From Posidonia oceanica (Eukaryota; Streptophyta; Magnoliopsida; Alismatales; Posidoniaceae), in assembly GCA_037176725.1 (NCBI GenBank), contig JAZBRS010000020.1, positions 51,674,001 to 51,738,000 on the forward strand: DNA of 64,000 bases, given 5' to 3'. This document shows positions 3,001-62,700 of the stretch, one piece after another; position 1 is the first letter of the stretch; every line of letters begins with the position of its first letter. The notes beneath the pieces are model-generated. The model did no database searches and was not told the origin of the DNA. It saw only the letters and a program-made list of their open reading frames with translations. The translations under genes and the position numbers were made by a program.

Positions 3001-3200
3001 TGAAGTCCTGCCTGCTTGATTCCTCGTACCGGACAGACGAGGACATGCTCCCCTTTGATGCGACTTCGTATCGGACGGACGATTGCTCGCCTGCTTGATT
3101 CCATGTACCGGATGGACGAGGACAAGCACCCCATTTTCGCAACGTCGTACCGGACGGACAATGCCCCGCTTGCTTGATTCCTCCTACCGGATGGACGAGG
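1..3200. repeat. Higher-order repeat, about 1.50 kb period
   Basis: Marker variants recur about 1500 bp apart. Examples are the GCGTACCTTT variant near 327 and 1828, the TTTTGTCGGA/TTTTGTCAGA variant at 1201 and 2702, the TCCTAAGTTTGTG/TCCTAAGTTCGTG variant near 1468 and 2969, and the AGCACCCCATTTT variant near 1623 and 3125. 1501 bp equals 19 monomers of 79 bp. About two copies are present, the first truncated by the window edge. Confidence 0.8.
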
Positions 3201-15200: not shown

Positions 15201-16010
15201 TGTACCAGACAGATGAAGTCCCGTCTGCTTGATTCCTTGTACCGGACGAACGAGAACAAGCCCTCCTTTCGTGCTACTTCGTACCTGACTGACGAAGTCC
15301 TGCCTGCTAGTTTCAGTGTGCTGAACGGATGAGGACATGCTCTCCATTCGCACGACTTCGTATCGGACGGACGAAGTCCTGCCTACTTGATTCCTCATAC
15401 CGGTCAAGCAAGTACAAGTCCTCCTTTTCCGCGACCTTATATCAGACAGACAAAGTCCAGCCAGCTTAATTCCTCGTACCAGACGGGCGAGGACAAGCCC
15501 TCCTTTCGCTCAACTTCGTCCCAGACAGACGAAGTCCAACATGCTTGATTCCTCGTACCAGACCGACGAGGGCATGCCCTCCTACCGTGTGACTATGTAC
15601 TGAACGGACGAAGTCCTATCTGCTTGATTCCTCATACCAAACGAACGTGGACAAGCTCTGCTTGCGCGACTTCGAACTGGATGGATGCAGTCTCGCCTGC
15701 TTGATATCTCGTACCAGCCAAACGAGGACATGCTCTCCTTTCGCGTGACTTCGTAACGGACGGACGAAGTCCCGTTTGCTTGATTCCTCGTACCGGACGA
15801 ACGTGGACTAGCTCTGCTTGCACAAATTCGAACCGGATAGATGTTGTCCCACCAGCTTGATACCCCATACCAGGCAGACGAGAACATGCTTTCCTTTCGC
15901 ATGACTTCGTACAGGATGAACGAAGTCCTGCCTGCGTGATTCCTCGTACCAGACGGACGAGGACATGCTCTCCTTTTGCGCGACTTTGTACCAGACAGAC
16001 GAAGTCCCAA
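6275..16010. repeat. 79-bp satellite array, block 2
   Basis: Continuation of the same satellite, in the same orientation and phase, between LINE copy D and the minus-strand LINE cluster. Both dyads are well preserved in many monomers, for example 8300-8460. On the minus strand the consensus has no stop codon in any frame, which explains long spurious frames such as the 418-codon one at 10653-11909. No unrelated sequence is visible in this 9.7 kb. Confidence 0.95.
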
Positions 16011-34600: not shown

Positions 34601-37600
34601 CGAAGTCATGCGTGGTTGATTCCTCGTACCAAATGGACGAGGTCAAGCCCTGCTTTTGCGTGACTTCGTACCGGATGGACGAAGAGCAGCTTGCTTGATT
34701 CCTCGTACCAGAAGGACGAGGACAGCCCTCCTATCGCGCAACTTCGTACCGGACAAACGAAGTCCTGCCAGTTTGATTCCTCGTACCGAATGGACGTGGA
34801 CAAGCCCTCCTATCACATGACTTCGTGCCAGACTGACGTAGTCCCGCCTACTTGATTTCTCGTAACGGACGTCAGAGGACATGCTTTCCTTTTGCACAAC
34901 TTCGTACCGGACGGACGAAGTCCCGCTTGCTTGATTCCTCATAACAGATGGACGAGGATAGGCTCTCCTTTCGTGTGTCTTCGTAATAGTAGGACATAGT
35001 CCCGCTTGCATGTTTCCTTGTACCGGACGAACGAGAACAAGTCCTCCTTTCGGGCAACTTCTTACCGGACAGACGAAGTGCCACCTACTTGATTCAACGT
35101 AATGGATGGACAAGGACAAGTGCTCCATTCGCGTGACTCGTACTAGACGAACGAAGTCGTGCGTGCTTGATTCCTAGTACCAGACGGACGAGGTCAAGCC
35201 CTCCTCTTGCGCGACTTCGTACCGGATGGACGAAGTCAAGCATGCTTGATTCCTCGTACCCGATGAACGAGGACAAGCACACCTTTCTAGCAACATCGTA
35301 CCAGTCGAACGAAGTCTTGCCTGCTTGATTCCTCATACCAGATGGAAGAGGACATGCTCACTGTACGCGTGACTTCGTAACAAATGGACGAAGTCCTGCC
35401 TACATGATTCCTCGTACCAGACAGACGAGGACATGCCCACCATTCGCGCGACTTCATACCGGACGGTCGAAGTCCCGCTTGCTAGATTCCTCGTACCGGA
35501 TGGATAAGGACAAGCCCTCATTTCGTGCGACTTTGTACCGGACGGACGATGTCCCTCCCACTTGATTCCTGGTACCGGATAGACAAGGACAAGCCCTCCT
35601 TTCGCGTGACTTAGTACCAGATGGACGTAGTCCTACCTGCAAGATTCCTCATACTTAACGGACGACGACAAGCCCTCCTATTGTCTGACTTCGTACCAGA
35701 CGTACAAAGTCACGCCAGCTTGATTCCTCATAACAGATGAACGAGGATAAGCACAGGTTTCAAGCAACATCATACCATACGAACGAAGTCCCGCTTGCTT
35801 GATCCCTCATACCGGACGGAAGAGGACATGCTTTCCTTTTGCACGACTTTGTACTGGACGGGCGAAGTCTCGCCTGCTTGATTCCTCGTACCGGATGGAC
35901 GTGGACATGCTCTCCTTTCGCGCGACTTCGTATCAAACAGACGTAGTCCTGCTTGCTTGATTCATCGTACCAGACAGAAGGGGACTAATCCTCATTCCGA
36001 GTGACTTCGTACCGGTCAGACGAAGTCCTGCCTGCTTGATTACTCATTTCGGACCAACGAGGACAAGCACAACTTTCACGCGACTTTGTACTGGACGGAC
36101 GTAGTCCTAGTTGCTTGATTCCTCAAACCGGACGGACGAGGACAAGGCCTCCTTTCGTGCGACTTCGTACCAAATGGACGAAGTCCCGCCTGCTTGATTC
36201 CTTGTACCGAATGGACATTGACAAGCTCACCTTTCGTGCGACTTCTTAACAGACAAACAAAGTCACACCTGCTAGATTCCTCATACCGAATGAACGATGA
36301 TATGCACTCCATTCGGGCGACATCATACCAGACGGATGAAGTCCTGCCTGCTTGATTCCTCATACCTGATGAAAGAGGACAAGCTTTCCTTTCGCACAAC
36401 TTCGTACCAGACGGATGAAGTCCCGCCTACATGATTCCACATACCAAACTAATGAGGGCAAGCTTTCCCTTCGTGCGACTTCATACCGGACAGACGTAGT
36501 CCTACTTGCTTTATTCCTTGTACTAGACGGACAGGGACCAGTCCTCCTTTGGAGCGACTTCTTACTAGACAGATAGAGTCCCGCCTACGTAATTCCTTGT
36601 ACCAGATGGACGAGCACAAGCCCTCCTTTCACGCGACTTCATACAAGATGGACGAAATCTAGCTTGCTTGATTCCATGTACTAGAAGGACGAGGGCAAGC
36701 CCTTGTTTCGTGTGACTTCGTACTGCACAGACGAAGTCCTTCCCGCTTGATACCTCTTACCGAACGGACGACGACAATCTATCCTTTCTCGTGGCTTCGT
36801 ACCGGACGGACGAAGTCCCACCTGCTTGATTCCTCGTACCAGTTTGACAAGAACATGCTCTCCTTTCGCACGACATCGTACCGGATGGACGAAGTACCAC
36901 CTACTTGATTCCTCATACCGGACGGACGAGGGCAAGCTCTCCTTTCGTGTGACTTCGTACTAGACGAACGAAGTCCCACGTGCTTGATTCCTCATACCAG
37001 ACCGTCGAGGTCAAGCTCTCCTTTCACACGATTTCGTTTCGAACGAACGAAGTCCCATGTGCTTGATTCCTCGTACCGGACCGTCGAGTTCAAGCTCTCC
37101 TTTCACACAACTTCGTGCTGGATGGACGAAGTCCAACCTGCTTGATTCGTCATACCAGACGGACTAGGACACGCCCTCCTATTGCGCGACTTTGTACAGG
37201 ACAGACGAAGTCCAGCATGCTTGATTCCTCGTACCAAATGGACGAGGAATAGCCATCCTATCATGCGCCTTCGTAAGAGGCAGATGAAGTCCCGCCTGCT
37301 TGATTCCTCGTACCAGACGGAAGAGAACATGCTTTCCTTTCTCACGTCTTCAAACTGGACGGACGAAGTCCCGCCAGCTTGATTCCTCGTACATGACGGA
37401 CGAAGAGAAGCACTCCTTTGACGTGACTTTAAACTGGACGGATGAAGTCCAGCGTGCTTGATTCCATCGTACTGCACGAACAAGGACAAGCTCTCCTTTC
37501 ACGCGTCTTCGTATCGGACGAACGAAGAAGGACGAGGACATGCCCTCGTTTCGCGCTTCTTCATACCAAACGGACGAAGTCCCTCCCATTTGATTCCTGG

Positions 37601-40097
37601 TACCGGACGGACGAGGACAAGCTTTCGTTTCACGTGACTTCGTACCGGACGGACGAAGTCCTGCCTACATGATTCCTCGTATCGGACGGATGAGGACAAG
37701 CTCACCATTCACGTGACTTCGTAGCGGACAGACAAATTCCCGCCTGATTAATTCCTCGTATCGGACGGATGAGGACATGTTCTCCTTTCATGCGTCTTCG
37801 TACCGGACATGCTTTCCATTTGCACGACTTCGTAGCGGATGGACGAAGTCCCATTTGCTTGATTCCTCGTAACAGACGGACGAGGACAATCTCTCCTTTT
37901 GCATGACTTCGTACTGGACGAACGAAGTCGGACGTGCTTGATTTCTCGGACCGGACGGATGAGATCAAGCCCTCCTTTTGCGCGACTTCGTACCGGAAAG
38001 ACGGATTCTCGCCTGCTTAATTCAACGTACAGGACGGACGATGACAAGCCCTCCTTTCGTGCGACTTCGTACCGAAAGGACAAATTCCCGCCTGCTTGGT
38101 TCAACGTACCCGAAGGACGAGGACAGCCCTCCTATCGCGCGACTTCGTAGCGGACGGATGATGTCCCACCTGCTTGATTCCTTGTAAGGGATGGATGAGG
38201 ACAAGCTCTCCTTTCGCGTGACTTCGTACTGGATGAACGAAGTCGCGCATGCTTGATTCCTCGTATTGAACGAACGAGGTCAAGTCCTCCTTTTGCGTGG
38301 CTTCGTACTAAACTGACGAAGTGCAGCTTGCTTGGTTCCCCGTACCCGAAGGATGAGGACAGCCCTCCTATCACGCGACTTCATACTGGACGGACGAAGT
38401 CCAACTAGCTTGATTCCTCGTACCAAATGGACATGGACAAGCCCTCATATCACGTGACTTCGTACCAGACTGATGTAGTCTCGCCTGCTTGATTCCTCGT
38501 ACTAGACGGACGATGAGATGCTCTCCTTTCGCACGACTTCGTATCGGACGGACGAAGTACAACCTGCTTGATTCGCCGTACCAGATGGATGAGGACAAGC
38601 TCTCCTTTTGCGTGACTTCGTACTAGATGAATGAAGTCCTGCGTGCTTGATTCCTCGTACTGGACCGTCAAGGTCAAGCTCTCCTTTCGCACGATTTTGT
38701 TCCGAACAGACGAAGTTCCGTGTGCTAGGTTCCTTGTACTGGACCGTCGAGGTCATGCTCTCCTTTCGCACAACTTCATACCGGACAAACGAAATCCTAC
38801 CTACTTGATTCGTCATACCTGACAGACTAGGACAAGCCCTCCTTTCGCGTGAATTAGTACAGGACGGACGAAGTCCAGCCTGCTTGATTCCTCGTACCAG
38901 ATGGACGAGGACTAGCCATCCTATCATGCAACTTCGTAAGAGGCAGACAAAGTCCCGCCTGCTTGATTCCTCGTACCGGACGGAAGAGGACATGCTTTCC
39001 TTTCTCACGTCTTCGTACTGGACGGACGAAGTCCCGCCAACTTGATTCCTCGTACATGACGGACGAGGAGAAGCACTCCTTTCACATGACTTCATACTGG
39101 ACGGACAAAGTCCCGCGTGCTTGATTCCATCATACTGCACGAACAAGGACAAGCTCTCCTTTCACACGTCTTCGTATCGAACAGACGAAGAAGGACGAGG
39201 ACATGCCCTCGTTTCGCGCTTCTTCGTACTGGACAGATGAAATCCCTCCCATTTGATTCCTAGTACAGGATGGACGAGGACAAGCATTTGTTTCACGTGA
39301 CTTCGTACCAGACGGATGAAGTCCCGCCTACATGATTCCTCGTACTAGACGAACGACGACGGGCTCACTATTCGCGCGACTTCGTATCGAACGGACGAAT
39401 TCCCACCTAATTAATTCCTCGTATCGGACGGACAAGGACATGTTTTCGTTTCACGCGTCTTCGTACCGGACGGACGAAGTCCAGCCTACTTGAGTCCTCG
39501 TACCAAATGGACGAGGACAAGCTCTTCTTTCGCACGACTTCGTACAAACGAACGAAGTCCAGCCTGCTTGATTCCACATACCAGACGGACAAGGACAAGC
39601 CCTCCTATCGCGTGACTTCATACCAGACAGACAAAGTGCAGCCTGCTTGATTCCACATACCAAACAGAAGAGGACAAGCCCTCCTATCGTGCGACTTCGG
39701 ACCAGATGGATGAAGTCCCGCCTGCTTGATTCCTAGTACGGGATGGAAGAGGACATGCTTTGCTTTCGCACGACTTCGTAGCGGACGGACGAAGTCCTGC
39801 TTGCTTGATTCCTCGTAACGGACGGACAAGGACAATCTCTCCTTTCGCGTGACTTCGTACTGGACGAACGAAGTCGGGCATGCTTGATTTCTCGTACCGG
39901 ACGGACGAGGTCAAGCCCTCCTTTTGCGCGACTTCGTACTGGAAGGACGGATTCCCGCCTGCTTGATTCAACGTACAGGACGAACGAGGACAAGCCCTCC
40001 TTTTGCGCGACTTCGTACCGGAAGGACAGATTCCCGCCTGCTTGATTCAACATACCTGAAGGATGTGGACAGCCCTCCTATCATGCGACTTCGTAGC
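25617..40097. repeat. 79-bp satellite array, block 3
   Basis: The longest satellite block, about 14.5 kb, in the same orientation and monomer as blocks 1 and 2. It runs without other sequence from the 5' end of LINE copy C to the LTR of the Tat/Ogre-like element at 40098. The last satellite bases are ...GCGACTTCGTAGC, so the LTR element interrupted the GACTTCGT/ACGAAGTC dyad just after its left arm. Confidence 0.95.
25640..39990. repeat. Higher-order repeats of about 6.95 kb, with an inner 1.66-kb duplication
   Basis: Long stretches of block 3 recur about 6.93-6.98 kb apart. GATTGCCCATAC near 25722 and 32702, CGGACGCAGTCCTTCCCACT-type near 26095 and 33075, GGACTAGGACAAG near 26607 and 33556, and TCGTAACGGACGT near 27936 and 34859 are matched pairs. 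Part of the same unit recurs again at 37.1 kb and 38.8 kb. There, the ATGCCCTCGTTTCGCGCTTC variant (near 37540 and 39200) and the GGACATGTTCTCC/GGACATGTTTTCG variant show a spacing of about 1.66 kb, close to 21 monomers. Confidence 0.75.
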
Positions 40098-43000
40098 TAT
40101 AGCGATCCCACATTTCGTGATCATCCGTGGACACTGGCAGAGCTCACGTGCACCGATCGGAAATCAGGTTCACTATTAGTGGGTGGTTCGAGGAGGAAAC
40201 TTGACTCAAAACACCAAAAAAACAGGGGCAAAAAGCCAAAGGGAAAAAAAAGAAAGGGAAGATAAAAAGGAGTTGCCACCGTATCTATTAAATTGAGAGA
40301 CAAGAAAAATCAAGGAAATGCATGAAAAACATGCAAAACCACACAAGGAGATGCAATGCAATGCAAATGCTATGCAAAGAAGAAGTCTCGTGCCAAGGAC
40401 GAGGGCAAAAGGGTCATTGCGGGCCAGAGAAAGGGTAAGGACTCCTATTACGCATGGGGAAGGTGTTAGGCACCCCCGACACGCCCGACGAGCAGTCTTT
40501 CTAGGCTTACGCTTGCTTCTGAGGGAAAATGCATGCTTTGAATGCCTAAGTGTCATGAATGCCTGCTAAATGAGGTGCTTGGATGCCTGAGTGCTAGGTA
40601 TGTTGTGATTACATGCTCAAATGTGTGTTCTAAATGACGCAGTGCACAAGGGAAGTAAACATGCAACCTATGTGCTCAGTAGCACTGTCTATGTTCCGAA
40701 CCGGGCGAACACTGGTTCATGAGAACTCCAGGCAGTAAGCATCACTGCCCTAATGTAAATGCAAGTGATTAAAACAAAACGGCGGTAAAACCATACACAT
40801 GCAAGCGACATGCAAGGGAAAACAAGAGTCGGCATGCAAAACGGTGCAAAACAAGCAAAAACAGATGCTAGCACGCAAAACGGTGCAAAAATAGGCAAAA
40901 ACAGATGCTGGCACGCAAAATAGTGCGAAAATGGGCAAAAACAAATACTGGCATGCAAAACGATGCATGCAATGCAAATGAATGATGTGTTGTGATTCAG
41001 ATGGACTTATCTTGAGAATCTGAGGCTGATCTGAGATAACTTTGGTTTAAATGAAAGATCATTCAACTAGGAAGACCGGGACTGTTAGATCGTGGAAATC
41101 CAACGGTCCGATCTAAAGTTAATCAAGAATCAAATCAGAAGGCTCAAGGGCCAAAAAAGGTAGGGGCCTAAGTGCAAATAGTCCCTAAGGGTGTGCAATG
41201 CAGGATGTGTGCATGCAAAAGTGATGAAAATGCTTGAATACATGCAAGGATGCAATGATAGATGACATGGGAATGCAAATGCATGCAAAAATGCAATGCA
41301 AGGACCTAAGTGTAATTTGGGAAAACTACAGGGTCCTATGTGCAAAATGTGCCTAACTGTGTGTGAAACAGGCCTAATGCAGGCAAAAGATGATAAAGAA
41401 ACCATGCATGGGTGAATGCAAGGCTAAACAGGAGTTATGCATGCAAAAATGCAAGAAAAGGACCTAAATGCAGTTTTAAAAACTTATAGGACCTAAATGC
41501 AATGCAAGGAAAGCATGCACACTCGCAAAAGTTGAAAACTGGGTCCAATATGCAATTTCAGAAAACAATGGGACCTTAAAACAATGCAATGAGGTTTAAA
41601 ATACAACTAAACATGGCATTTGTAAGCATAGGGGACCAAGATGCAATAAAAACATGTTATTGGTGTTTCACTGCAATGCAATATAGTTTGACACATGATT
41701 TAAATGATTGATTAACAACAGATCGACTTAAATGCAATTATTATATTTTTTAGGGGTTTTTTACAATGTAAAAATGCAAAAAACAGACTACTGACTCACA
41801 GCAAATGGACCTAAATGCAATTATTACATTTTTTTGGGGTTTTTTGCAATGTTATATGGTTTTAAATGTGCTTTAAATGAAAACTGATTGAATAAAGGAC
41901 CCAGATGCAATTAAATGATTTTTTGAGTTTTTTAATGCAATGCAATAAGGTAAACATGTGATTTAAATGATTTTATCAACTGGCATAGGACTAAAATGCA
42001 AATAAAACAAATTGAGATTTTTTGGATGCAATGCGCATGGCGGTGCTGGGGGTCCCAGAGGCAGGAGCCAGTGCAGGCGGAGTGTCCGGCGGTGTCGGCG
42101 GCGTCGGAGGGCAGCTGGTGCATGCTAGCTACGTTGGTGATCTTCTGCAGTGAAGGTCTGAGGTGGGGCGACCACTGGAGGCTACAGAACGGCACGGAGG
42201 GTGCTGGGTTAGCTTTGTGGCGGTCGGGCGATGCTTTACGAGCAGATCCGGAGGTCGGAGGCCATTGGAGACGTCCGGACAGTCTAGAGGTAACGCGCAA
42301 AGACGGCGGAGGACGGGAGGAGGTCTGGAGGTAGTGGCGAGGGCCAAGCTGCGTTGATCTAGCTTCCCAAGGCCCCAACGATGCTCTAGACGAAGTTTGA
42401 GAAGCTCTGGTGCAGCGAGGCGGCGGGACGACCCAGCGATGGCTCCTGAGGTGGCTCCGGCGTGTTGTAGACGTCGTGCGAGCGGAGGAGGGCTGAGGAC
42501 AGCTCGTAGAGGCCAGAGAGGGCGTGCTAGTGTGCTAGCGAACCTCAGAGCGGAGCTTGGAGCGACGGAGCATCCTGGAATGTGCTGGACAGGTCGCTGA
42601 AAGCGCGGGGGCTCATCAGGGAAGACAACCCCACGGCGACGCGGGAAAACTATGCTAGGCCTCTAACTTAAAAACCACCTATCTAGGAAGCAAGAATAGA
42701 ACATGCTGAGCAAGGATCCAGGGTTGTTTACCTTTAAAGCGCGCCAGAATGCTCTGACGACGTCCGGTTGGGTTGCTACTGCTGGCGGAGGTCGCTGTGG
42801 TGCCAGATGAAGCGGAGGCGTCGCACGGCGATCGGAGACGACTCCTAGTGCTGCGAGGAAGCCTCTGGGATGCTCAGAAGCGAGGTTGCAAGCTCGAAGC
42901 TCAATTTGGGATTTTTGGGTGGCCTCACTGTGGATTTCTGGCTCTCTGGTGTGGGTGGCTCTCCAGTGCTCTCGAGATGGTGGTCTGGGTTGGTGGAGGT

Positions 43001-43609
43001 GTGGGGAAGAAGGAGGAGAGGTCTGGAGGTGGTTCTGTGAGCTTAGGAGTGAGGTGGAGTTTGGTGATGTTTCTGAACAGGAACTGTGCAAGGTGTTTGT
43101 GGTGGGGGAAAGGATCTGTGGGAGCGATGGGGGTGAGCTTGGGATTGGGTTGAGAAGCTGGATGTTCAGTGAGTGGCGTGGTGGAGTTTGAAAGGATTCT
43201 GTGGGCTGTGTGGTGGATGGAAGCCTTGGAATCAGGTCTGCTAATGGGGGAGGAAGCTCTCTGGTTTTCTCTCTTGCACAGGGCTCTTCTCTCTAGTTCT
43301 CTCTTGCACAGGTGTGGTGGTTGGATGACGAAGAAGATGGGTCGGTTTTGTTCAAAGGAGTGCACTTGATTGGGAATTGACAGAGGCATGGGTTGTCTGG
43401 TCAGTTGGCAGGTGAATGGCAGCAATGTGGGTGGTTGGTAGGTCATGGCAGTGAGTGGAGAAGGCCGACAGGTGGGTGGCTCTGTGAGGCTGGCTCCGCC
43501 GCACGATGGAGTGTGGCCAGGGGTGGAGTGTGCAGCGGCGAGGCTGGCTGTGAGTGCAGCGGCTTGCGTGTGGAGAGGCTGGATCAGGAGGGAGTGTGAG
43601 AGGAAGCTA

Positions 43610-44330
43610 CGGCTATGAGGAGAAGAAGAGAAGGAAAGAGGCTGGGCCTGGGTGTGGGCTGAGGAGTTGGGTGTGGCAAGCTTGTGCGCAGGAGAAGGAA
43701 GAAAAAGAAAGAAGAGGAAGAAGGGAGGCAGGGGAGGAAACGGGCTGAGGCTGTGCTGGCCGAGAGGAAAAGAAAGAAAAAAGAGAAAGAAGGAAGGGCT
43801 AGGGAGGAAACGGGCTGGGCCCAGGTGGAAGGAAAAAAAAGGGAAAAAAAAGGAAGGGGCCTGGTGGGTTGGGCTGAAGAAAAGAAGAAAAGGAAGAAAG
43901 AAAGATGGAAAGAAAGAAAGAGAGAAGGAGAAAAGAGAATTAAAAAAAAATCCAATAAGATGGAATAAAATAAAATAAAAATAAAATAGATGGTAGGAAG
44001 GGGAAGAAATGAGGAAATGGGCTTTGGTGTTGGGTGAGGAATAAAAGGGAAGAAAAAAAAGAAATGGGAATGTAGGAAAGAAAGAAAGAAAGAAGAAAGG
44101 AAGAAAGAGAGGGAAAGAGGAAATTAAAAATCAAATAATATTAAATAAAAATAGAAATAAAATAGAAGGAAGGAAGGAGAAGAATTGAGGAGGAGCAAGA
44201 ATGAGTTGGGCCCGCGGGAGAGCAAGAGAAGAAGGAGAAAGAGAGAGAGGATAAAGAGGAGAGAGAAAAGGATAATGAGGAGAGAGGAAAAGGATAATAG
44301 GGAGAGAGAAAAGGATAATGGCTTGGATTT
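43610..44330. repeat. Purine-rich (GA) tract inside the LTR
   Basis: About 700 bp almost free of pyrimidines on the + strand (GAAGAAAAAGAAAGAAGAGG and similar), hence CT-rich in element sense. The matching tract in the 5' LTR begins near 63965 and is cut by the window end. Open frames rich in Lys and Glu here reflect composition only. Its place in the first kilobase of the LTR in element sense means that it lies in U3, where CT-rich promoters could act; that is inference. Confidence 0.85.
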
Positions 44331-44357
44331 GAAGGTGTTTTGTATGAGTGTGTGAGC

Positions 44358-44509
44358 TAGGGTTTCTATGGTTGACCTAGGGTTTAACCTAGGGTTTTGT
44401 AAGATTTTAAATGGGATTTTTGAAGGGTTTGGTGTAGTTTTACCTAGGGTTTTCTAGGGTTTTAAATGTGATTGTTTTCCTAGAGTTTGAAGGGGATTTC
44501 CTAGGGTTT
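44358..44509. promoter_or_regulatory. Cluster of six TAGGGTTT (telo-box-like) motifs
   Basis: TAGGGTTT occurs at 44358, 44378, 44390, 44445, 44455 and 44502. Read in element sense these are AAACCCTA, the plant telo-box motif known from promoters of many plant genes. They lie 140-290 bp inside the start of the LTR, in U3. They are irregularly spaced, so they are not a telomeric array. A role in transcription is possible but unproven from sequence. Confidence 0.6.
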
Positions 44510-44651
44510 TTGGGATTGTTTTCTTGGGTTTGGTTTTAGGGTTCTAAAGTTTTTAATTTTTCTGGCTTTTTGTGGTGTGGGGTTTCCTAGGTTGTTCCAC
44601 CAGAGAGATGGTGGGAGCCACTTAACAAGGGTCAAAAGTGGGGTGTCAACA

Positions 44652-45209: not shown

Positions 45210-45490
45210 AGACAGCCGAAGCGCCTATGGCATCGAAAGAAGTGTTGGACAGTTATGACCGGTGTCAACCGAGCAGTTTGGGCTGCCAGCCCGGAGCAGA
45301 CATTTTGACAGGCATCAACCGAGCAGTTTGGGCTGCTAGCCTGGGGTAGGAAAGGTAGCTTGTCCTCACTCGAGGAAGCAAGTAGGCGACTGGAGCAGCG
45401 CGGAGCAATAGGGGCAAAATTCCCACGCGAAAGAAAGGGGGCATCCTTCCTACTGAGAAAGCAAGCAAGGAAAGGGGACGCATGATAGAT

Positions 45491-48384: not shown

Positions 48385-48590
48385 GGGGGCTTCGCCTGTA
48401 CAGGGCGGAGCCGCACAAATGGTACTCTTGTCCTCGTCCGTGCGGAGTGAGGAGACAAGGGAAGGGGGCTTCGTTTGTCTGCAACGAAGTCACAAAGGAG
48501 GCGCGCTTGTCCTTGTCCCGTACGGAGCAAGGGGACAAGTGAAAAGAGATTTCGTCCGCCTGGAGCGAAGTCGCACAGGGATTAAGGGTG
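48385..48590 (-). repeat. Satellite-like 78-81 bp tandem units inside the LTR element
   Basis: Two complete units and a partial one. In element sense, GCGACTTCGCTCC...GGACGAAATC, then CTTGTCC...GGACAAGGACAAG, then GTGACTTCGTTGC...AACGAAG, then CGGACGAGGACAAG, then GCGGCTCCGCC...GGCGAAG. The GCGACTTCG-type positions fall at about 48573, 48490 and 48411, a spacing of 78-83 bp. Order, orientation and the two alternating inverted repeats agree with the satellite monomer: GACTTCGT...ACGAAGTC, then CCTCGT...ACGAGGACAAG. Coding potential in one frame also resembles that of the satellite (R-D-K-D-K-R-A-S-F versus R-T-D-E-D-K-L-S-F). Confidence 0.75.
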
Positions 48591-49752: not shown

Positions 49753-50728
49753 CTACTGGTAGTACTTCTTGAGGTAGCATGAATTGACCGGCTCGGACTG
49801 CTGCGCCGCTGGAGAAGATCTGCTTGATTAAGAAGAGACCACGCCAGTTGGGCCGGAATTTCCCTCGACCGTCGGAGAGATGGATGGCCCGGAGGACCAT
49901 ATCCCCTGGATTGAAGCTTCTAGGCCTAATCTTCTTCAGGTATGCTCGGGCCGAGCGCTTCTGGTAGCACTGAGCATGATGTATGGCCTGCAGCCTATGC
50001 TCATCAATCAGGTTTAGCTGGATGTGGCGGTCTTCGACCCATTCTACTTCTTCTAGCTCAGCTTCTCGTAGGATCTGCAGTGAGGGGATCTCTACCTCGA
50101 CAAGCAGCACTGCCTCCATGCCATACACCAGAGAGTACGGGGTGGCTCCTGTTGAGCTTCGGACTGATGTCCTATATGCCCAGAGCACGTACGAAAGCTT
50201 ATCATGCCAGTCCTTGTGAGTCTCTACCATCTTTTTCAAGATCTTGATAAGGTTCTTGTTGGCAGACTCTACCGTGCCGTTCATCTGTGGCTGATAAGGT
50301 GAGAATCGGTGATGCTTGATGTGGAAGCTCTACAGGTAGTCTTCTTTCCTCTTGGCTATGAAGTTTGTGTCGTTATCAGAGATGAGCGCGTGCGAGACCC
50401 CATATCGGGCTATGATATTGTTTCTGATAAACTTTTCTATAGCCACGGCAGTAACTGTCTTATAGGAGGCTACTTCCACCTACTTGATAAAGTAGTCGAT
50501 CACCACTAGGATGTAGCGATGACCGTTGGATGCTGGTGGGTGTACGGCGCCAATGACATCGATCCCCCAGGTGGAGAAGGGCCATGGCGAAGACATGCTG
50601 TGCAATTCCTGTGGGGGTGCGTGCATGAAGTTCCCATGAATCTGGCAGCTATGGCACTTGCGCACAAATTGGCAGCAGTCTGCCTCCATGGTTGATCAGA
50701 TGTAGCCTTGGAGCATAATCTTCTTGTC
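49753..50728 (-). pseudogene. Integrase domain of pol (decayed)
   Basis: Carries out strand transfer of the cDNA into host DNA in intact elements. The zinc-binding end keeps C-H-S-C-Q-I-H-G (near 50650). The catalytic core shows G-I-D-V-I-G (first Asp, near 50560), L-I-S-D-N-D (second Asp, near 50375) and N-G-T-V-E-S-A-N-K-N (Glu, near 50270), so the DDE triad is still encoded. The C-terminus has G-K-F-R-P-N-W-R-G. Damage: a 1-nt frameshift from the RNase H frame near 50725, a TGA at 50696-50698, TAG at 50480-50482 (where Trp is expected), TAG at 50330-50332, and a frameshift near 49790. The expected end is the TAG at 49753-49755; the shifted frame runs on to 49664. Confidence 0.85.
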
Positions 50729-52186
50729 AGCAACACACCATTCATGTGAGGGTCGCAGGTCCCTGCATGGACTTGGAGCATCAGTGTGTCGGCCTCCTTT
50801 TTGTTTACGTAGCGTAGGAGCATCAGATTGTACGATCTTCTGTACAGATGTCCTGCCCCTATCACGTACTTCAACGCCAGATGCGCCAAAGTCTTTCTAT
50901 CTGTGACTGAGGTGCTAGGTGGGGGGCTGCCAGATTCCAGGAAGACTTTAATGTCATGGTACCAGGGGAGCTCCTCTGCTGGATCCGCTTCCTCGATAGT
51001 CATGTAGTGTGCGGGCTGTTCAACACGAGAGACTGATACGTCCACTGCATAGCCCTCGGGTATGGAGAGCCAAGACGCTAAGGTTGCCAGAGCATCTGCA
51101 TAGGCGTTCTTGGCCCTATTCATGTAAGTGAAGCGGATGTCTTCAAATTCTCCTATCAGCTTCAGTAGGCATTCATGATAGGGTACTAGCTTAGGGTCCT
51201 TGGTCTTCCAATCGCCGTTAACCTGGGAGATGACCAGCATCACATCTCCGTGCACATGCAGCTTGTGCACATCATGCTCAAGTGCGACTTGCAGTCCTAG
51301 AAGGTAGGCTTCGTACTCTGCCTCATTGTTGGTGCAAGGGAATATCATCTTCCTTGCAAAGGGGATTAGAACTCCCTGCAGCATTGATAGGACAGCGCCG
51401 ATGCCTCTGCCCCTTCTATTAACTGCGCCATCAAAGTACAGATGCCACTGTAGCTCATCTTCAGGATCCTTTTGCTCTGAATCCTCCATGGCGAACAGAA
51501 TGTCTTCATCGGGGAACTGTGTCTGCAGAGGTTGGTATTCAGGTAAGGGGAAGTCGGCCAGATGATCTGCCATGGCTTGACCCTTCATTGATTTTTGCGT
51601 GACGAAGGTGATGTCGTATTGAGACAATAACACCTGCCACTTAACACATCTACTTACCATAGCCGGCTTCTGAAAAAGGAACTTGATGGGGTCATGCTGG
51701 CATAAGAGCTGGACTGGGTGTGCCATCATGTAATGCCTTAGCTTCTGTGTAGCCCAGAGCAGAGACAAGCAGGTCTTCTCTATGGCACTATACTTGGCTT
51801 TGCAATCAGTAAACTTCTTGCTCAGGTAGTAGATGGCACGCTCCTTTCTACCAGTTTCATCATGTTGGCCCAAGACGGCGCCCATGGAATGCTGCGTGGT
51901 AGAAAGATAGAGAATCAATGGTCTTCCTAGCACAGGAGTGACCAGGACAGGAGGCTTGATCAAGAGCTGCTTGATCTTGTCAAATGCAGCTTGGCACTCC
52001 TCGCTCCAGTTGATCTGTGCATTCTTCTTCAGGAGCTTAAAGATCGGTTCGTAGATGGGTGTGAGTTACGCGATGAACCGACTGATGTATTGCAGATGCC
52101 CCAGCAGGCCTCTGACTTCATTCTCAGTCCTAGTGGGTGGCATGTCTATGATGGCTTTAGCCTTACTCGGGTCCACTTCAATTCCC
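50725..52186 (-). pseudogene. RNase H plus second (archaeal-type) RNase H of pol
   Basis: The first half is the RNase H linked to Ty3 RT: P-L-I-L-Y-L-S, then the K-Y-S-A-I-E-K-T-C-L-S-L-L-W-A block near 51780. It degrades the RNA of RNA:DNA hybrids. The second half (about 51420-51080) is another RNase H fold, with Y-F-D-G-A, N-N-E-A-E-Y-E-A-Y, H-G-D and Y-A-D-A-L-A-T-L-A-S. These supply the expected D-E-D-D residues. This extra aRNH domain is a hallmark of the Tat group. The frame is interrupted by TAA at 52066-52068 (Gln expected), then open from about 51963 to 50735, where a frameshift leads into integrase. Confidence 0.85.
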
Positions 52187-52188
52187 CT

Positions 52189-53067
52189 CTAGCTGACGAT
52201 GTAGCCCAACAGCTTACTGGATGATACCCTGAATACACATTTACTGGGGTTAAGGCAAAGCTTGTATTTCCTCAGGTGATCAAAGAGCTTCTTGAGGCAG
52301 ATAAGGTGATCCTCAGGCTCTCTAGACTTAGCGATAATGTTGTCCACGTAGACCTCAACTTCTTGGTGCATGAGGTCGTGGAATAATGCTATCATCGCCC
52401 TCTGATATATTGCTCCAGCGTTCTTGAGCCCAAATGGCATGACCTGATAGTAGAAGACTCCCCAGGGGGTGATAAATGAGGTCTTCACCATGTCTTCTTC
52501 TGGCATTCTGATCTGATTGTAGCCGGAGAAGCCGTCCATGAAGGAGAGCATCTTGTGCCCCGTAGTGTTGTCTACCAGGACGTCGATGTGTGGTAGGGGA
52601 AAGTCATCCTTAGGACTGGCTTTGTTCAGATCCCTATAATCATTGCACATATGGACCCGTCCATCCTTCTTGGGCACAGGCACAACATTTGCGAGCCATT
52701 CTGGATAGAGGACGACCTTGAGAAAACCAACACTGTGCTGCTTCATGATTTCCTCCTTGATTTTGAGCAGCCACTGTGGTCGCCACTTCCGGAGCTTCTG
52801 CTTTACTGGCTTCGCGTCTGGGTCTAGAGGCAAGTTGTGCACCATGATCTCGACATCAAGGCCGACCATGTCTTCATAGCTCCAAGCGAAGACATTTGCA
52901 TATTCCATAAGGAATGCAATAAACTCTGCTCTAGCCTGGGGCGGCAATAGGGCGCTGATGCGAACCTCTCTGACATCTTCGACTGTGCCAACATTGATAA
53001 CCTCCGTCTCTTCCTCGACATGGAGGTTGGACCCTTCCAGGTCATCATCATAAGGCGGACCTCTCAT
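52189..53067 (-). pseudogene. Reverse transcriptase domain of pol, YVDD changed to YVDN
   Basis: A Ty3-type RT of about 290 codons. Visible in order: V-P-V-P-K-K-D-G-R-V-H-M-C-N-D-Y-R-D-L-N-K-A, F-P-L-P-H-I-D, F-M-D-G-F-S-G-Y-N-Q-I, V-F-Y-Y-Q-V-M-P-F-G-L-K-N-A-G-A-I-Y-Q, then Y-V-D-N-I-I-A-K-S. The second Asp of the catalytic Y-V-D-D is Asn (52339-52341), a single G-to-A change in element sense at a former CpG, and should inactivate the enzyme. The frame ends at TAG (52189-52191) exactly where Gln is expected in the I-V-S-Q-R-G-I-E segment, with homology continuing beyond. The acidic stretch just upstream (53068-53100) is in another frame. Confidence 0.92.
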
Positions 53068-54897: not shown

Positions 54898-55794
54898 TTA
54901 GACAGTTGGCTGAGACGCAGAAGAGACCACCTCGATCGGTTCTTTGTCAAAGTTTTCCGCCATGACGACGATAACATCGTCATCGTAACGAAACTTGATC
55001 ATATGGTGGAGGGTCGAGGGGATCACCTGATGCATGTGCAGCCAAGGGCGCCCAAGCAGAAGATTAAAAGAAGGCTCCAAGTCGACGATATAGAATTCGA
55101 CATCGAATTCGATCGGGCCAATGGTAAGTGGAATAACCAGGATTCCCAGAGAATCATGCTGCGTCTTGTTAAAAGAGGTCATTCCCTTCACAGCTGGTGT
55201 GATATGCTCGGCTTTGAATCCGAGCTTCAATGCTGTGCGTATGGGACAGATGTTAAGGTCTGACCCATTATCGACCAGCGAGAGGGGAATGCGAAACCTT
55301 TTGAACTGCACCGTGATGGACAGGGACTGATTATGATTAGTCCCCTCTGGAGGCAGTTCATCGCTCGAGAAAGAGATGACCTGTGGCTCTGCGATCATAC
55401 CCACCATATTTTCCAGAGTTGAAGGCTCGATGGTTTGGGACACATGGGCGGCCTAGAACACACGAAGAAAAGCCTCTCAGTGTTCGCGGGAAGAACGTAT
55501 CAGGTCCCAGATGGATATGTCAACCTTGACTTTTTCCAGCTGGGCCGTTATGTCAACTGAAGGCTGGTCTTTTTTGGTGGTGGGGATAGTGGGTCTGGTG
55601 GTAGGTTCTGTAGAGGTGGGATTAGGGGATTGGTTCACTGGAGGTTGGCTCACAGGTGGGGATGGGCCTATTGGTGGTTGGTTCACAGGCAGAGTAGGTT
55701 CAGGACTGTTAGGCCTGGCTATTGGGGCTGCAGGTCTGGTTACTGGGGCGGTGGGTCTGTACACCCTCCCCGACCGCATGACATCCGCACACAT
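54898..55794 (-). pseudogene. Aspartic protease region of pol
   Basis: Two open pieces in sense. The first, 55477-55794, starts with R-S-G-R-V-Y and a Pro-rich repeat, then an I-S-I-W-D-L-I-R-S-S segment, typical of the stretch leading to the Tat-group protease. The second, 54898-55443, holds the catalytic motif L-V-D-N-G-S-D-L-N (the D-T/S-G of other retroelements; D-N-G-S is the form I recall for Tat/Ogre), then F-N-L-L-L-G-R-P-W, the usual flap-side I-L-G-R-P-W block. It would cleave the polyprotein. A stop and a frame change separate the pieces near 55460. Confidence 0.8.
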
Positions 55795-56329
55795 TTCTGC
55801 GGCGTAGTCATAATGAATACGGTGGGTATCCCTGGTTAGGTTAATAACTGGGTGAGCACAAGCTACGAGCTCGAGAGGGGTCAGTGGGGTATTTGTCGGT
55901 TGGCAGGTAGATGAAGGTTGTTGTTGGGGAGGCTGTGCTGGCTCTGGCCTGTAGGCAGATGGGGGGTTGAGCCTCTAGTTGTATGGCGGGCCTCGCGGTA
56001 ACACGCTCCGGCTTGGCATTCAGTCGGATCATGTGAATCCCTGGCTCGGAGCTAGCGAGCGCTGCAAGATAGAGAGAAGAAGAAACGGGCACAGAAAGAT
56101 CTTGAATCAGATCATAAGGGTCCACCATAGATGCAGTGGGCCCAAAGGGGAAGAGAGAATGCACACCTGAAGTCCTCGCACTTCCTGGGCCAGAATGCTC
56201 AGGCAGGGGCTATTGGACAATGCTTGGATTAGGGGGACCTGTTCCTAATGCAGAGGGGGATGCTGGTGGAGGGGTGGAAGAAGATGCTGCCTCCTGAGTG
56301 TTGATACTGATGACCTTCCAGTCAATCAG

Positions 56330-58122
56330 GTCCTACATAGCTCCCCGCAGAGTGAAGCAATTGTTTGTCGAGTGCCCGACTACTCGATGAAAATCGCAGA
56401 AGTGATCCGTCCTATACCACCTCGAAAGAGGGTTCGGTGGTGGGCAGATTTCGGGGAGCGTGAGGAGTGACGCGACCTTGGGGAGGACGGCGCTCAATGG
56501 CTCCACAAGTTGAGTGTAGTGGCACTGAGGGTGGGGCCGTCTCTGCCCTTAGTGTTGTCATTGCCAAACTGGTGGGGCTGAGTAGACCGGTCAGGCGGTG
56601 GTAGTGATCTGTGGTGTGTGAGGTGCACTAGGTGTGGGTGCATACACTACTTGATTCGGGCCGGGCAGAGCTACCATGTGGACAGGAGCGGTAGGAGAGT
56701 CGACGTATGCAACGGCGGGCCACAGGGGATCCCTCCTCCTAGGGTTGTTGTTGTTGCCACCGCCGTTGTTGTTGGTGTTGCTGCTACTGGGGGAGGTGGC
56801 TTGCTTGGCGAAAACAGAGAGTGTTGGAAAATTGCCGCTCTGTAGGGTGCTCTCCACACGTGTGCCGACCCGAATTAGCGATGCAAAACTAGTGACAGCC
56901 TGGATGGCAAGCAGAGCACCAGTGGATGGCTGCACGCCTCGGATTACAATCCCGACAGATTCCTCGTCAGAGGGTCTATTGCGAACTTGTGCAGCAAGGG
57001 CATGGCAACGGCCGACGTACTCTCCGAACGGCTCGTTGTTTCTTTGCTTGAGAGCGACGAGGTCCTCACACTTAGGGACCAAGTCAAGATTGAAGGAGTA
57101 TTGTTCCAGGAACGCCCTGCCTAAGTCGTTCCAAGTCTTGATGGTGGCCATATCAAGTGATGTGAACCACTTGAGGGCCAGGCCAGTAAAACTCTTCTGA
57201 AACAGGCGGATCAACAACCTGTCATCAGCCTGAAGCTGAGCCAAGTCTCCGCAATACACCTTCAAATGGGGGATGGGGCAGTCCCTATCATTGTATTTGT
57301 CAAATGTCGGGATTTTGAATTTCAGTGGGAGTACCGCCTCTGGAAAGCAACAGAGGTCTCGGGAGTGGTAGGAGTGGAAGTCCGTGCCTTGCACTTGTCG
57401 AAGTGCTTTCTCTAGAACGGTGAACCTATCATCGTTGGATTCTAAAGTTGCTGCCAAAGGTGATGGGACAGTAGGGGCAGGAACTACATACGCCGTATGG
57501 GTTGCACCGAGGTGCTCCTCTGGATCCACCATCGCGTCGCCTGGTGATGCAACGGGATGGCCAGCGTATCCATGCAGATGTGCAGTGGGTGCTGTGGGTG
57601 GTGCCAAGTATGCAGGGGGAAATTGCCGATGCACAGGATGGGGGTATGTAGGATGCTATGTGGTGAATTGTGGGGATTGTGGGAGCAACAGCTACTACAA
57701 TGGCATGGTGCCAAGCAGCGGGCCAGAGAAGTGCTGCACCCGAACCAACCCGAGGGACTGGCCACCAGGTGGTGGAGATGCATGCTGTGCGGTGAATGAA
57801 GTGTGTGCAGAGAGGGGAGGCTATGCCCCTATCACAGGAGTAGAGAGCAGCTGGGGTGATGGCCGGGGCGGTAGGGCAGTAGGGAATGCCTGGAGAGCAG
57901 GAACAAGATGTAGACGGATCTCAGGTGCAGAAGGAGCTGGAGGAGGGCGGGTAGACAGAGCCATGCCCTGAAAGATCTGGGCAAGCTCTGCCAAGCGTTG
58001 GTATCGCTCCTCAGGGGTCCCGTCAATGGGAATGCTGAATTGCAGTGCTGGCGAGGGACCAGATGCAAGGGGAAGGACTCAGACTGTCCAGAAGGATAGG
58101 ATCCTAAGGAGTAAGTCGCCAT
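56330..58122 (-). pseudogene. gag (decayed)
   Basis: Structural protein that packages element RNA. The likely Met is at 58122 (M-A-T-Y-S-L-G-S); a 1-nt frameshift near 58075 moves the sequence into the frame reading P-E-E-R-Y-Q-R-L-A-E-L-A-Q. A Pro-rich stretch follows, with a TAG near 57660. The capsid core is open at 56591-57634: F-K-I-P-T-F-D-K-Y, L-K-W-F-T-S-L-D, T-W-N-D-L, F-L-E-Q-Y-S-F-N. A C-D-F-H-x3-G-H-S-T-N-N-C-F knuckle-like motif follows near 56400, then a TAG near 56336 (Gln expected). Upstream, 58123-58551 is open but Pro/Ser-rich and may be leader. The rest to 55800 is Ser/Pro-rich Gag-protease linker. Confidence 0.8.
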
Positions 58123-59720: not shown

Positions 59721-59721
59721 C

Positions 59722-62700
59722 TGTAGCAATCCCGCATTTCACAATCGTCCGTGGACGCTGCCAGAGCACGCGTGCACCGATCGGAAATCAGGTTCACTAT
59801 TAGCGGGTGGTTCAAGGAGGAAACTCGACTCAAGACACCAAAAAAAACAGGGGTGAAAAGCCAAAGGGAAAAAAAAGAAGGGAAGATAAAAGGGAGTCGC
59901 CACCGTGTCTATTAAATCGGGAGATAAGGAAAACCAGGGAAATGCATGCAAAACCACACAAGGAGATGCAATGCAATGCAATTGCTATGCAAAGAAGATG
60001 TCTCGTGTCAAGGACGAGGGCAAAAGGGTCATTACGAGCCAGAGAAAGGGTTAGGACTCCTGTTACGCGCGGGGAAGGTGTTAGGCACCCCCAACATGCC
60101 TGAGAAACGGTCTTTCAAGGCTTATGCTCGCTTCTGAGGGAAAATGCATGCTTTGAATACCTAAGTGCCATGAATGCCTGCTAAATGAGGTGCTTGGATG
60201 CCTAAGTGCTAGGTATGCTATGATTACATGCTCAAATGTGTGTTCCAAATGGCGCGGTGCACAAGGGAAGTAAACGTGTAACTTATGTGCTCAGCAGCGC
60301 TGTCTGTGTTATGAACCAGGCGAACACTGGTTCGTGAGAACTCCAAGCAGTAAGCATCACTGCCCAAATGCAAATGCAAGTGATTAAAACAAAACGGCGG
60401 TAAACCATACACATGCAAGCGACATGCAAGGGAAAACAAGAGTCGGCACGCAAAAAAAGCAAAACAAGCGAAACGGGAGTGGGCAAGCAAAACGGTGCCA
60501 AAACAGGCGAAAATAGATGCTAGCACGCAAAATGGTGCAAAAGCGATAGCAAGCACGCAAAACGGTGCGAAAATGGGCAAAAATAGATGCTGGCACTCAA
60601 AACAATGCATGCAATGCAAATGAATGATGTGTTGTGATTCAGATGGACTTATCTTGAGAATCTGAGGCCTGATCTGAGATAACTTTGGTTTAAATAAAAG
60701 ATCATTCAACCAAGAAGACCTGGATAGTTAGATCGTGGAAATCCAATGGTTCGATCTAAAGTTATTCAGGAACCAAATCAGAAGGCTCAAGGACCAGAAA
60801 AGGTAGGGGCCTAAGTGCAAATAGTCCCTAAGGGTGTGCATGCAAAAGTGATGAAAATGCTTGAATACATGCAAGGATGCAATGATAGATGACATGGGAA
60901 TGCAAATGCATGCAAAAATGCAATGCAAGGACCTAAGTGTAATTTGGGAAAACTACAGGGTCCTATGTGCAAAATGTGCCTAACTGTGTGTGAAACAGGC
61001 CTAATGCAGGCAAAAGATGATAAAGAAACCATGCATGGGTGAATGCAAGGCTAAACAGGAGTTATGCATGCAAAAATGCAAGAAAAGGACCTAAATGCAG
61101 TTTTAAAAACTTATAGGACCTAAATGCAATGCAAGGAAAGCATGCACACTCGCAAAAGTTGAAAACTGGGTCCAATATGCAATTTCAGAAAACAATGGGA
61201 CCTTAAAACAATGCAATGAGGTTTAAAATACAACTAAACATGGCATTTGTAAGCATAGGGGACCAAGATGCAATAAAAACATGTTATTGGTGTTTTACTG
61301 CAATGCAATATAGTTTGACACATGATTTAAATGATTGATTAACAACAGATGGACTTAAATGCAATTATTATATTTTTTAGGGGTTTTTTACAATGTAAAA
61401 ATGCAAAAAATAGACTACTGACTCACAGCAGATGGACCTAAATACAATTATTACATTTTTTTGGGGTTTTTTGCACTGTTATATGGCTTTAAACGTGCTT
61501 TAAATGAAAACTGATTGAATAAAGGACCCAGATGCAATTAAATGATTTTTTGAGTTTTTTAATGCAATGCAATAAAGTAAACATGTGATTTAAATGATTT
61601 TATCAACTGGCATAGGACTAAAATGCAAATAAAACAAATTGAGATTTTTTAGATGCAATGCAGTATGGTAAAATGTGGTTTTAAATGATTTTGAAACCAG
61701 TAGAGGACTAAAGTGCAATAAAAAACTAACAGAGGCAATTTTGTGCAATGTAATAAGGTAAACATGCAGATTAAATGATTTATAAACCATGCAAAGGACT
61801 GGAATGAAAATCTGGAAACATGTAGCATTTTGTTTCAATGCAATATGGTTTGAAAAGGCATTTAAATGATTTTGAAACCATGCAGGTGGACCTAGATGCA
61901 AATAAGCAAAAATGCTGACTTTTAATGCAATGCAGTATAGTTAAAATGCAACATTAAATGAAATGCAAACCAACTGTGGACTGAGATGCAATTTAAACGA
62001 ATATGAGGGCTAAAATGCAATGCATGCATTAAACTAAACATTCAGATGCATTTAAATATTTAAATGAAGAACCTGCATGCAATAAACTGAAACTCAAACA
62101 TTTAACTGCAATGCAATATGCTAACAAAATAATATTAAATGATTTGATTCAAAGTCAAGACCTGAAAGTAATTAAAGAAAACTAACAGACCTGACTACAA
62201 GAAATAAAAAAGGAATGCTTACTGCAGGTGGATCAACTTGCAAATATTTAAAACTTAAAGAAAATAAAAGCAATGCATGCACCGAAACCTTATTAAACTT
62301 TTAAAACGAAAAAAATAAATGCACAGTCGTCTTCCCCGCACAGCACAGGAACAGTGTTGGCGGAGGAAGAAGCAGTAGCGGCGGCGACGGCGGGCGCATG
62401 GCGGTGCTGGGGGTCCCAGAGGCAGGAGCTAGCGCAGGTAGAGTGTTCGGCGATGCAGTGCGGCTAGTGCATGCTGGCGACGTCGGTGATCTTCTACAGT
62501 GAAGGTCTGAGGTGGGGCGACCATCGGAGGCTGCAGAACGGTGTGGAGGGTGCTGGGTTAGCTTCGTGGCGGTCAGGCGATGCTTTACGAGCAGATCCGA
62601 AGGTCGGAGGCCGCTGGAGATGTTCGGACGGTCTGGAGGTAACGCACAAAGACGGCGGAGGAGGGGAGGAGGTCTGGAGGTAGTGGCGAGGGCCAAGCTG

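What the first reader, a model, noticed from the sequence alone, without database searches (positions are those of the whole stretch)
48385..48590. The satellite filling the window resembles a tandem repeat in the 3' region of the adjacent Tat/Ogre element
At 48385-48590 the LTR element carries two to three units of 78-81 bp. They alternate a (G)CTTCG...CGAAG dyad and a CTTGTCC/CTCGTCC...GGACAAG dyad, in the same order and, in element sense, the same strand as the 79-bp satellite monomer. Shared words include GCGACTTCG, GGACGAGGACAAG, CTCCTTT and ACGAAG. The hypervariable 3' UTR of Ogre/Tat elements is already known as a seedbed for satellites; here putative source and satellite product lie in one window. 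The satellite probably arose by expansion of such a 3' array. The reverse, capture of satellite by the element, is possible.
Basis: partly seen in the sequence, partly recalled or inferred. Interest (0 to 1): 0.86.

Follow-up and report, generated by a model that had tools for sequence, protein, structure and literature searches.

The report
Satellite kin inside an Ogre retrotransposon
A plant satellite DNA that fills about half of this window is truly related to short tandem repeats carried in the tail of a family of jumping genes (Ogre-type retrotransposons), which probably seeded it, although the jumping gene seen here landed in the satellite later and is not itself the source.

Summary
The resemblance is real homology. 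The array at 48385-48590 aligns to the 79-bp satellite and beats every dinucleotide, structure-preserving and stem-keeping shuffle. The carrier is an Ogre-type Tat element on the minus strand. All 51 copies examined carry the same 2.5-unit array, but they were found with queries containing it.

This copy is not the source. It jumped into an existing satellite array (5-bp target duplication GTAGC), and its two units fall outside the satellite in trees.

A closer relative turned up. Of four isolated satellite sites fetched, three are short arrays (about 5.5, 5.5 and 9-10 monomers) inside sister elements, nearer the 3' LTR, where this element keeps only a remnant at 45352-45388. Two loop positions grade from the 48.4-kb units through one of these arrays to the satellite. 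Bootstraps favour a satellite nested among element arrays; AU tests reject no alternative. Element-to-satellite is the best reading; capture is not excluded.

The process is known from Lathyrus Ogres, so this is a new member of a known kind.

The parts
1..16010 (+). 79-bp satellite array, left block
   Evidence: TRF period 79 with overlapping rows; satellite HMM hits
25640..40097 (+). 79-bp satellite array, right block; ends in the 5-bp target-site copy GTAGC (40093-40097)
   Evidence: flank letters
40098..44651 (-). 3' LTR of the Ogre-type element, about 4.55 kb; K2P 0.069 to the 5' LTR over 4482 sites
   Evidence: aligned pieces against 59721-64000 and L073; LTR start TGTTGACACC read
59721..64000 (-). 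5' LTR, runs past the window end to L073:993; about 730 bp of extra sequence at 61662-62393
48385..48590 (-). the reported array: A1-B1-A2-B2-A3, 2.5 satellite-related units (81 and 79 bp)
   Evidence: both units in 51 of 51 copies examined
45352..45388 (-). remnant of a satellite-type B half-unit, at the site where sister elements carry about 5.5 to 10 satellite-type monomers
   Evidence: 10.9 bits; a hit there in 15 of 20 further copies; flank matches of L082, L084, L085
47069..48067 (-). plant mobile domain ORF between the two satellite-related sites
   Evidence: PF10536 E 4.9e-12, PF24924 E 4.6e-8
50506..53067 (-). reverse transcriptase, RNase H and second RNase H-like domain (RVT_3), in two separate ORFs
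   Evidence: PF00078, PF17917, PF13456
49664..50692 (-). integrase remnant, weak
   Evidence: rve_3 E 0.0035 and Integrase_H2C2 E 0.076, both below the curated cut-off
54898..57634 (-). aspartic protease and gag ORFs
   Evidence: PF13650, PF03732
45589..46371 (-). other tandem arrays of the element's 3' region (42-bp and 40/104-bp units with GATAAG..CTTATC dyads), upstream landmark of the short satellite arrays in sister elements
   Evidence: TRF, sequence, flank match

Best explanation
An Ogre-lineage Tat retrotransposon family carries a roughly 79-bp unit made of two dyads, at two places of its long region between pol and the 3' LTR. One is a 2.5-unit array between integrase and the plant mobile domain ORF (48.4 kb here), the same in every copy examined. 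The other is a length-variable array nearer the 3' LTR, reduced to a remnant in this copy and holding about 5 to 10 units in three sister elements. Short arrays most likely arise and change length during reverse transcription by strand switching between repeats (inferred). One element-borne array of the second kind, or a close relative of it, then expanded by DNA-level processes such as unequal exchange or circle amplification (inferred) into large satellite stretches on several chromosomes, where the units drifted and lost CpGs. Later this element copy jumped into one such array. Shown: the homology, the element-borne short arrays, the later insertion, and the clustering of the best satellite hits against dispersed elements. 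Inferred: direction and mechanism of expansion.
For: Homology beyond all nulls. Element: gag, protease, RT, two RNase H-like domains and a 3' PMD ORF. Both units in 51 of 51 copies examined. Insertion into the satellite with TSD GTAGC and a monomer that reads on across the join. 3 of 4 isolated satellite sites fetched are short arrays with both flanks matching the element's 3' region at window 46.1-46.3 kb and 44.8-45.4 kb (L085's upstream flank is weakest, score 26.5 against null max 18). Their monomers match satellite monomers at 70.2% on average, against 72.4% among satellite monomers and 62.1% and 59.8% between satellite and the 48.4-kb units 2 and 1. Graded states (A-loop / B-loop): 48.4-kb units mostly CT or TT / CT; L085 array CT / TA; satellite TA / TA. 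With the 48.4-kb units as outgroup, satellite plus L082/L084 group together with L085 outside in 196, 195 and 191 of 200 bootstraps in three satellite samples. The 40 best-scored satellite hits sit in limited stretches of 8 contigs, while 39 element copies lie on 23 contigs and none in those stretches.
Against: AU tests do not reject element arrays as one group (p 0.42, 0.63, 0.37) or L082/L084 outside (p 0.35, 0.40, 0.49), and in one sample the tree with element arrays held together had the higher likelihood, i.e. the free search had missed it. Only about 80 columns. The satellite's own state CTTG-AT-TCC (265 of 295) is in 0 of the 19 element-borne monomers sampled, so the direct donor array was not found. 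Only three short arrays were seen, picked through an exact satellite half-unit. Whether those sister elements also carry the 48.4-kb array was not tested (1.2-kb loci). Some of the 150 element hits do lie inside the satellite stretches. The root assumes that the 48.4-kb units branch outside. No copy was seen in the act of expanding to a long array.
Confidence: 0.7

Rival explanations
1. Capture: the satellite came first and an ancestor of the element family picked up a piece of it, once or twice, and spread it by transposition.
For: Satellite, unit 1 and unit 2 form three separate groups when only the 48.4-kb units are used, so no direction is visible there. AU tests do not reject element arrays as one group. 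Elements demonstrably insert in the satellite.
Against: L085 has the CT state of the 48.4-kb units in 9 of 9 A-loops, while at most 3 of 295 window monomers can have it (the five commonest states account for 292). Two separate sites of the element's 3' region carry related units. 0 of 19 sampled element-borne monomers carry the satellite's commonest AT state. In Lathyrus, for three Ogre-related satellites, related species had the element arrays but no amplified satellite (PMC7004042, passages).
Confidence: 0.2
2. The window's own 48.4-kb array is the direct source of the satellite.
For: Clear homology; position between pol and the 3' LTR.
Against: This copy inserted into the satellite. The 48.4-kb units form a group apart from satellite plus short arrays in 200 of 200 bootstraps in each of three samples. 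Short arrays in sister elements are closer.
Confidence: 0.05
3. Convergence: both are just dyad-rich repeats and the similarity is compositional.
For: Other arrays of the same 3' region are also dyad-rich; keeping the stem letters alone gives a mean score of 29.
Against: Observed 63 exceeds all 2000 stem-keeping shuffles (max 56) and all 2000 structure-preserving shuffles (max 15); unit length, order, strand and spacing agree.
Confidence: 0.02
4. The dyads are kept by selection as RNA hairpins, and the unit is a functional cis-element of the retrotransposon (compatible with either direction).
For: Stem cells of the two units are 78-96% paired in 51 element copies. L082/L084 show a stem changed on both sides, CTCCG/CGGAG in place of CTTCG/CGAAG (sequence).
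Against: In 295 satellite monomers double changes in stem pairs are about as frequent as independence predicts, or slightly rarer. In elements A-C mismatches outnumber G-T pairs 168 to 47, against a hairpin in the sense RNA, though fixed subfamily differences inflate that count.
Confidence: 0.15

Closest known systems
Ogre-derived satellites of Lathyrus sativus (nine, among them FabTR-51, 52 and 54 to 58; Vondrak et al., PMC7004042, passages and one section read)
   Same: Short tandem arrays downstream of gag-pol in Ogre elements, long arrays of the same unit elsewhere; element copies inserted in expanded arrays; elements dispersed and long arrays localised.
   Different: Another genome; here two satellite-related sites per element and a graded series of unit types. 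No cytogenetics and no related-species test here.
82-bp repeat Coffea_sat11 of Tat elements in coffee pericentromeres (Cintra et al. 2022; title in reference lists of PMC11963269 and PMC13013560 and one sentence in the latter; paper not read)
   Same: Similar unit length, Tat 3' non-coding end, repeat near centromeres.
   Different: Sequence not available to me, so homology is untested; the position of the present satellite relative to centromeres is untested too.
Hypervariable 3' UTR of Tat/Ogre elements as satellite source (Macas et al. 2009; title in a reference list and as cited in PMC7004042; paper not read)
   Same: The general process.
   Different: Nothing in kind; a further case.

Membership tests
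Tat clade of Ty3/gypsy | second RNase H domain (aRH) besides RT-RH | tested here: met
   RT_RNaseH PF17917 at aa 14-116 and RVT_3 PF13456 at aa 177-295 of one ORF; aRH as the Tat hallmark from PMC6317226 (passages)
Ogre lineage | plant mobile domain ORF (in 57% of Ogre elements, PMC6317226) | tested here: met
   PF10536 at 47069-48067, minus strand = element sense
Ogre lineage | placement in an RT tree with reference lineages; PBS type | not tested
   no reference set was used; RT homologues up to 70% identical over part of the query, mostly unnamed; the sequence after the 5' LTR was read but not matched to a tRNA
Ogre lineage | long LTRs and short target-site duplication | tested here: met
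   LTR about 4.55 kb; 5-bp TSD GTAGC. Long LTRs as an Ogre trait are recalled, from no call
Retand lineage | antisense Transposase_28 ORF | tested here: inconclusive
   no Transposase_28 among the ORFs scanned, but all ORFs scanned were on the minus strand; LTRs are far longer than the 315-1194 bp given for Retand in PMC11963269
Satellite derived from an Ogre 3' array | short arrays of the unit at a fixed place downstream of pol in elements | tested here: met
   51 of 51 copies for the 48.4-kb units (copies found through the array); 3 of 4 isolated sites for the satellite-type unit
Satellite derived from an Ogre 3' array | long arrays of the same unit, localised, while elements are dispersed | tested here: met
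   only the best-scored places of each search were seen, and one search also lists sites on many other contigs
Satellite derived from an Ogre 3' array | element arrays older than the satellite (phylogeny) | tested here: inconclusive
   bootstrap favours nesting, AU does not reject alternatives; no related species available

The most novel reading that the evidence does not exclude
The satellite was built stepwise inside retrotransposons: a two-dyad unit occupied two sites of the element tail; at the site near the 3' LTR reverse transcription kept making and erasing short arrays while the loops changed one half-unit at a time (CT/CT, then CT/TA, then TA/TA), and the satellite is the last stage, released into large chromosome stretches that the same element family then invades. 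Ancestor, intermediate, product and reinvasion would all be present in one genome.
Probability: 0.35. Interest if true: 0.65.

Novelty: new member of a known kind. Interest (0 to 1): 0.5.

Why it matters
Where satellites come from is usually unreadable because the source is gone. Here element-borne short arrays and long arrays of one unit coexist in an assembled 2.96-Gb genome, with intermediate unit types, so direction, order of steps and the role of array-length change can be tested directly. It also shows that the copy nearest to hand can be the wrong candidate: the window's element is a later arrival.

Tried and rejected
RNA-hairpin selection: no covariation in satellite stems (the first A pair had only 133 of 295 usable monomers); the element tally was mis-registered for the A stems and was redone. 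Direction from the 48.4-kb units alone: FastTree suggested nesting of the satellite in unit 2, IQ-TREE on another sample did not; dropped. Array-number census over the whole genome by spaced patterns: not completed. Copy number of sister elements with short arrays (queries from L084 and L085): not completed. Satellite words in the paper library: 26 papers, 20 listed; by title none of the 20 is about a plant satellite, 6 were not seen. Protein searches with the array ORF and a satellite ORF gave one and three unnamed ENA proteins; P0121 served as a query, the satellite ones were only read. In note 3 I wrote 16 of 20 for the 45.35-kb remnant; the table gives 15 of 20.

Full report
Observation. 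In element sense the stretch 48385-48590 reads A1-B1-A2-B2-A3, with A dyads of the CTTCG..CGAAG kind and B dyads of the CTTGTC..GACAAG kind, A starts spaced 81 and 79 bp. Aligned to tandem copies of the 79-bp satellite consensus, window 48300-48650 scores 64 over about 198 bp with few gaps; 1000 dinucleotide shuffles give 9.1 +- 1.4, max 15. So the match is more than shared dyads. By HMM, window units 2 and 1 score 29.3 and 15.7 bits; the only other hit above 4 bits outside the satellite blocks is 37 bp at 45352-45388, 10.9 bits.

The element. Pfam finds gag, protease, RT, RNase H plus a second RNase H-like domain, and a plant mobile domain ORF downstream, on the minus strand; integrase is only a weak remnant. 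The second RNase H is the Tat hallmark, and the mobile domain occurs in 57% of Ogre elements in the survey of Neumann et al. (PMC6317226, passages). LTRs are about 4.55 kb and differ by K2P 0.069 over 4482 aligned sites (238 transitions, 55 transversions). The window is part of a 2.96-Gb, 80-contig genome. The element family is large: 4725 and 24994 first-look candidates for two queries, of which 40 and 150 were scored.

Who inserted into whom. The 3' LTR abuts satellite at 40097/40098. In the flanking genome the 5' LTR ends at L073:993 and satellite resumes at once. GTAGC stands on both sides (window 40093-40097; L073 994-998), and the flanks read on as one monomer, ACTTC-GTAGC-GAATGGATGAAGTCC beside consensus ACTTC-GTACC-GGACGGACGAAGTCC (letters printed, compared by eye). 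The element therefore jumped into an existing array, and its own 48.4-kb array lies inverted to the host array. This copy cannot have made the array around it.

The 48.4-kb units across the family. The 39 other copies fetched around the first hits, 11 copies of more distant subfamilies found with protein P0121, and the window copy, 51 of 51, show both units. The queries contained the array, so this is not an unbiased count. L022 shows a tandem duplication of array plus flank, L072 a partial second array nearby. Arrays agree at 91% within the window's subfamily and 80% between it and the others. Units match the satellite consensus at 66-70% on average; shuffled units of one set give 46% (max 57%). 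In IQ-TREE the satellite, unit 1 and unit 2 form three separate groups, so these units alone give no direction; an earlier FastTree hint of nesting did not hold.

The closer relatives. The B half-unit TTCCTCGTACCGGACGGACGAGGACAAG with up to 2 mismatches occurs 13825 times in the genome (5198 + 8627 on the two strands), the pattern read backwards 0 times. From the capped list of exact sites I chose four that stood apart from others. Three (L082, L084, L085) are short arrays of about 5.5, 5.5 and 9-10 monomers, and one (L083) is satellite through all of its 1.2 kb. The three short arrays lie in sister elements: upstream flanks match window 46.1-46.3 kb, downstream flanks window 44.8-45.4 kb, with scores (up, down) of 80 and 123.5, 50.5 and 111.5, 26.5 and 86, against null maxima of 16.5 to 19; L083 gives 17.5 against a null maximum of 18. 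That is the place of the window element's remnant at 45352-45388, at which 15 of 20 other copies of its subfamily also give a hit. In-element monomers match window satellite monomers at 70.2% on average, satellite monomers match each other at 72.4%, and satellite against the 48.4-kb units 2 and 1 gives 62.1% and 59.8%. Whether the three sister elements also carry the 48.4-kb array is unknown, since only 1.2 kb of each was fetched.

Direction. With the 48.4-kb units as outgroup, satellite plus the L082/L084 monomers form a group that leaves L085 outside in 196, 195 and 191 of 200 bootstrap trees for three random samples of 40 satellite monomers (branch support 98/92, 97/79, 95/87); all in-element monomers form one group in 0, 2 and 1 of 200; the satellite alone forms one group in 13, 103 and 173 of 200. 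But AU tests do not reject in-element monomers as one group (p 0.42, 0.63, 0.37), and in the second sample the constrained tree was the better one. State counts tell the same story more plainly. A-loop: unit 1 CT in 47 of 51, unit 2 TT in 42 and CT in 8 of 51, L085 CT in 9 of 9, L082 and L084 TA in 10 of 10, window satellite TA in 269 of 295. B-loop: unit 1 CT in 45 of 51, unit 2 CT in 49 of 51, L085 TA in 7 of 9, L082 and L084 AG in 6, TA in 3 and TG in 1 of 10, satellite TA in 263 of 295. The satellite's CTTG-AT-TCC state (265 of 295; L083 10 of 13) is in 0 of the 19 element-borne monomers. So the sampled element arrays were hardly taken recently from the satellite, and the direct donor was not sampled. 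I put 0.7 on element to satellite and 0.2 on capture.

Genome layout. The 40 best-scored satellite places fall on 8 contigs, on seven of them within stretches of about 1-5 Mb and on C19 within 50 kb; 39 element copies lie on 23 contigs and none in those stretches. By position, some of the 150 hits do lie in them (for example C60 at 36.6 and 37.9 Mb). Further exact sites, some isolated, occur on many other contigs. Whether the clusters are centromeric was not tested. Window monomers are 82% like the consensus (n 295); C to T and G to A make up 2206 of 3757 substitutions, and 52% of all substitutions fall on 24 CpG positions of 79, as in old methylated DNA (inference). The 401-bp satellite query finds 85-87% copies on other contigs, more diverged than the two LTRs of the inserted element, which fits insertion after spread of the satellite (inference; mutation rates may differ).

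How it most likely works. [quoted passage not shown] as cited in PMC7004042), and expansion into long arrays follows at DNA level. Nothing here shows either step directly. RNA-level selection on the dyads is not supported: double changes in satellite stems match independence, and mismatches in element stems are of the kind that breaks a sense-strand hairpin, though fixed differences inflate that tally. L082/L084 do show one stem altered on both sides.

Known or new. Lathyrus sativus offers the same picture with nine Ogre-derived satellites, including element copies inserted in expanded arrays (PMC7004042, passages and section 6). Coffee has an 82-bp Tat-borne repeat near centromeres (one sentence in PMC13013560; original paper not read). 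About half of the recently active Retand elements studied carry tandem arrays between pol and the 3' LTR (PMC11963269, abstract and passages). This is therefore a new member of a known kind; what stands out is a graded series in one genome. I found no paper printing the satellite's words, which proves little, since only 20 of 26 matching papers were listed and sequences often sit in supplements.

Noticed in passing
window about 16011-25640 (minus strand): A plant L1-type LINE sits inside the satellite: endonuclease at 21734-22933, RT at 20563-21129, DUF4283 at 22946-23464. Its exact ends were not determined.
   Followed up: partly
window 47069-48067: Sense-strand plant mobile domain ORF between the two satellite-related sites of the element.
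   Followed up: partly
window 45035-46700: The element's 3' region is packed with further dyad-bearing repeats (GATAAG..CTTATC, GGTATC..GATACC, GGGCTGGCAGCCC), suggesting that dyad units in general are prone to tandem growth there.
   Followed up: no
L022:2271-2738 and L072:1276-1695: Two element copies with extra satellite-related units: in L022 about 318 bp of array plus flank is repeated in tandem, in L072 a partial second array follows.
   Followed up: partly
G000 C28, C75, C47, C71 and others: The same 401-bp satellite segment recurs at 85-87% on other contigs but mostly at 68-79% in shifted registers nearby, a sign of long-range segment duplication or higher-order structure.
   Followed up: no
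window 61662-62393: About 730 bp present in the 5' LTR and absent from the 3' LTR.
   Followed up: no
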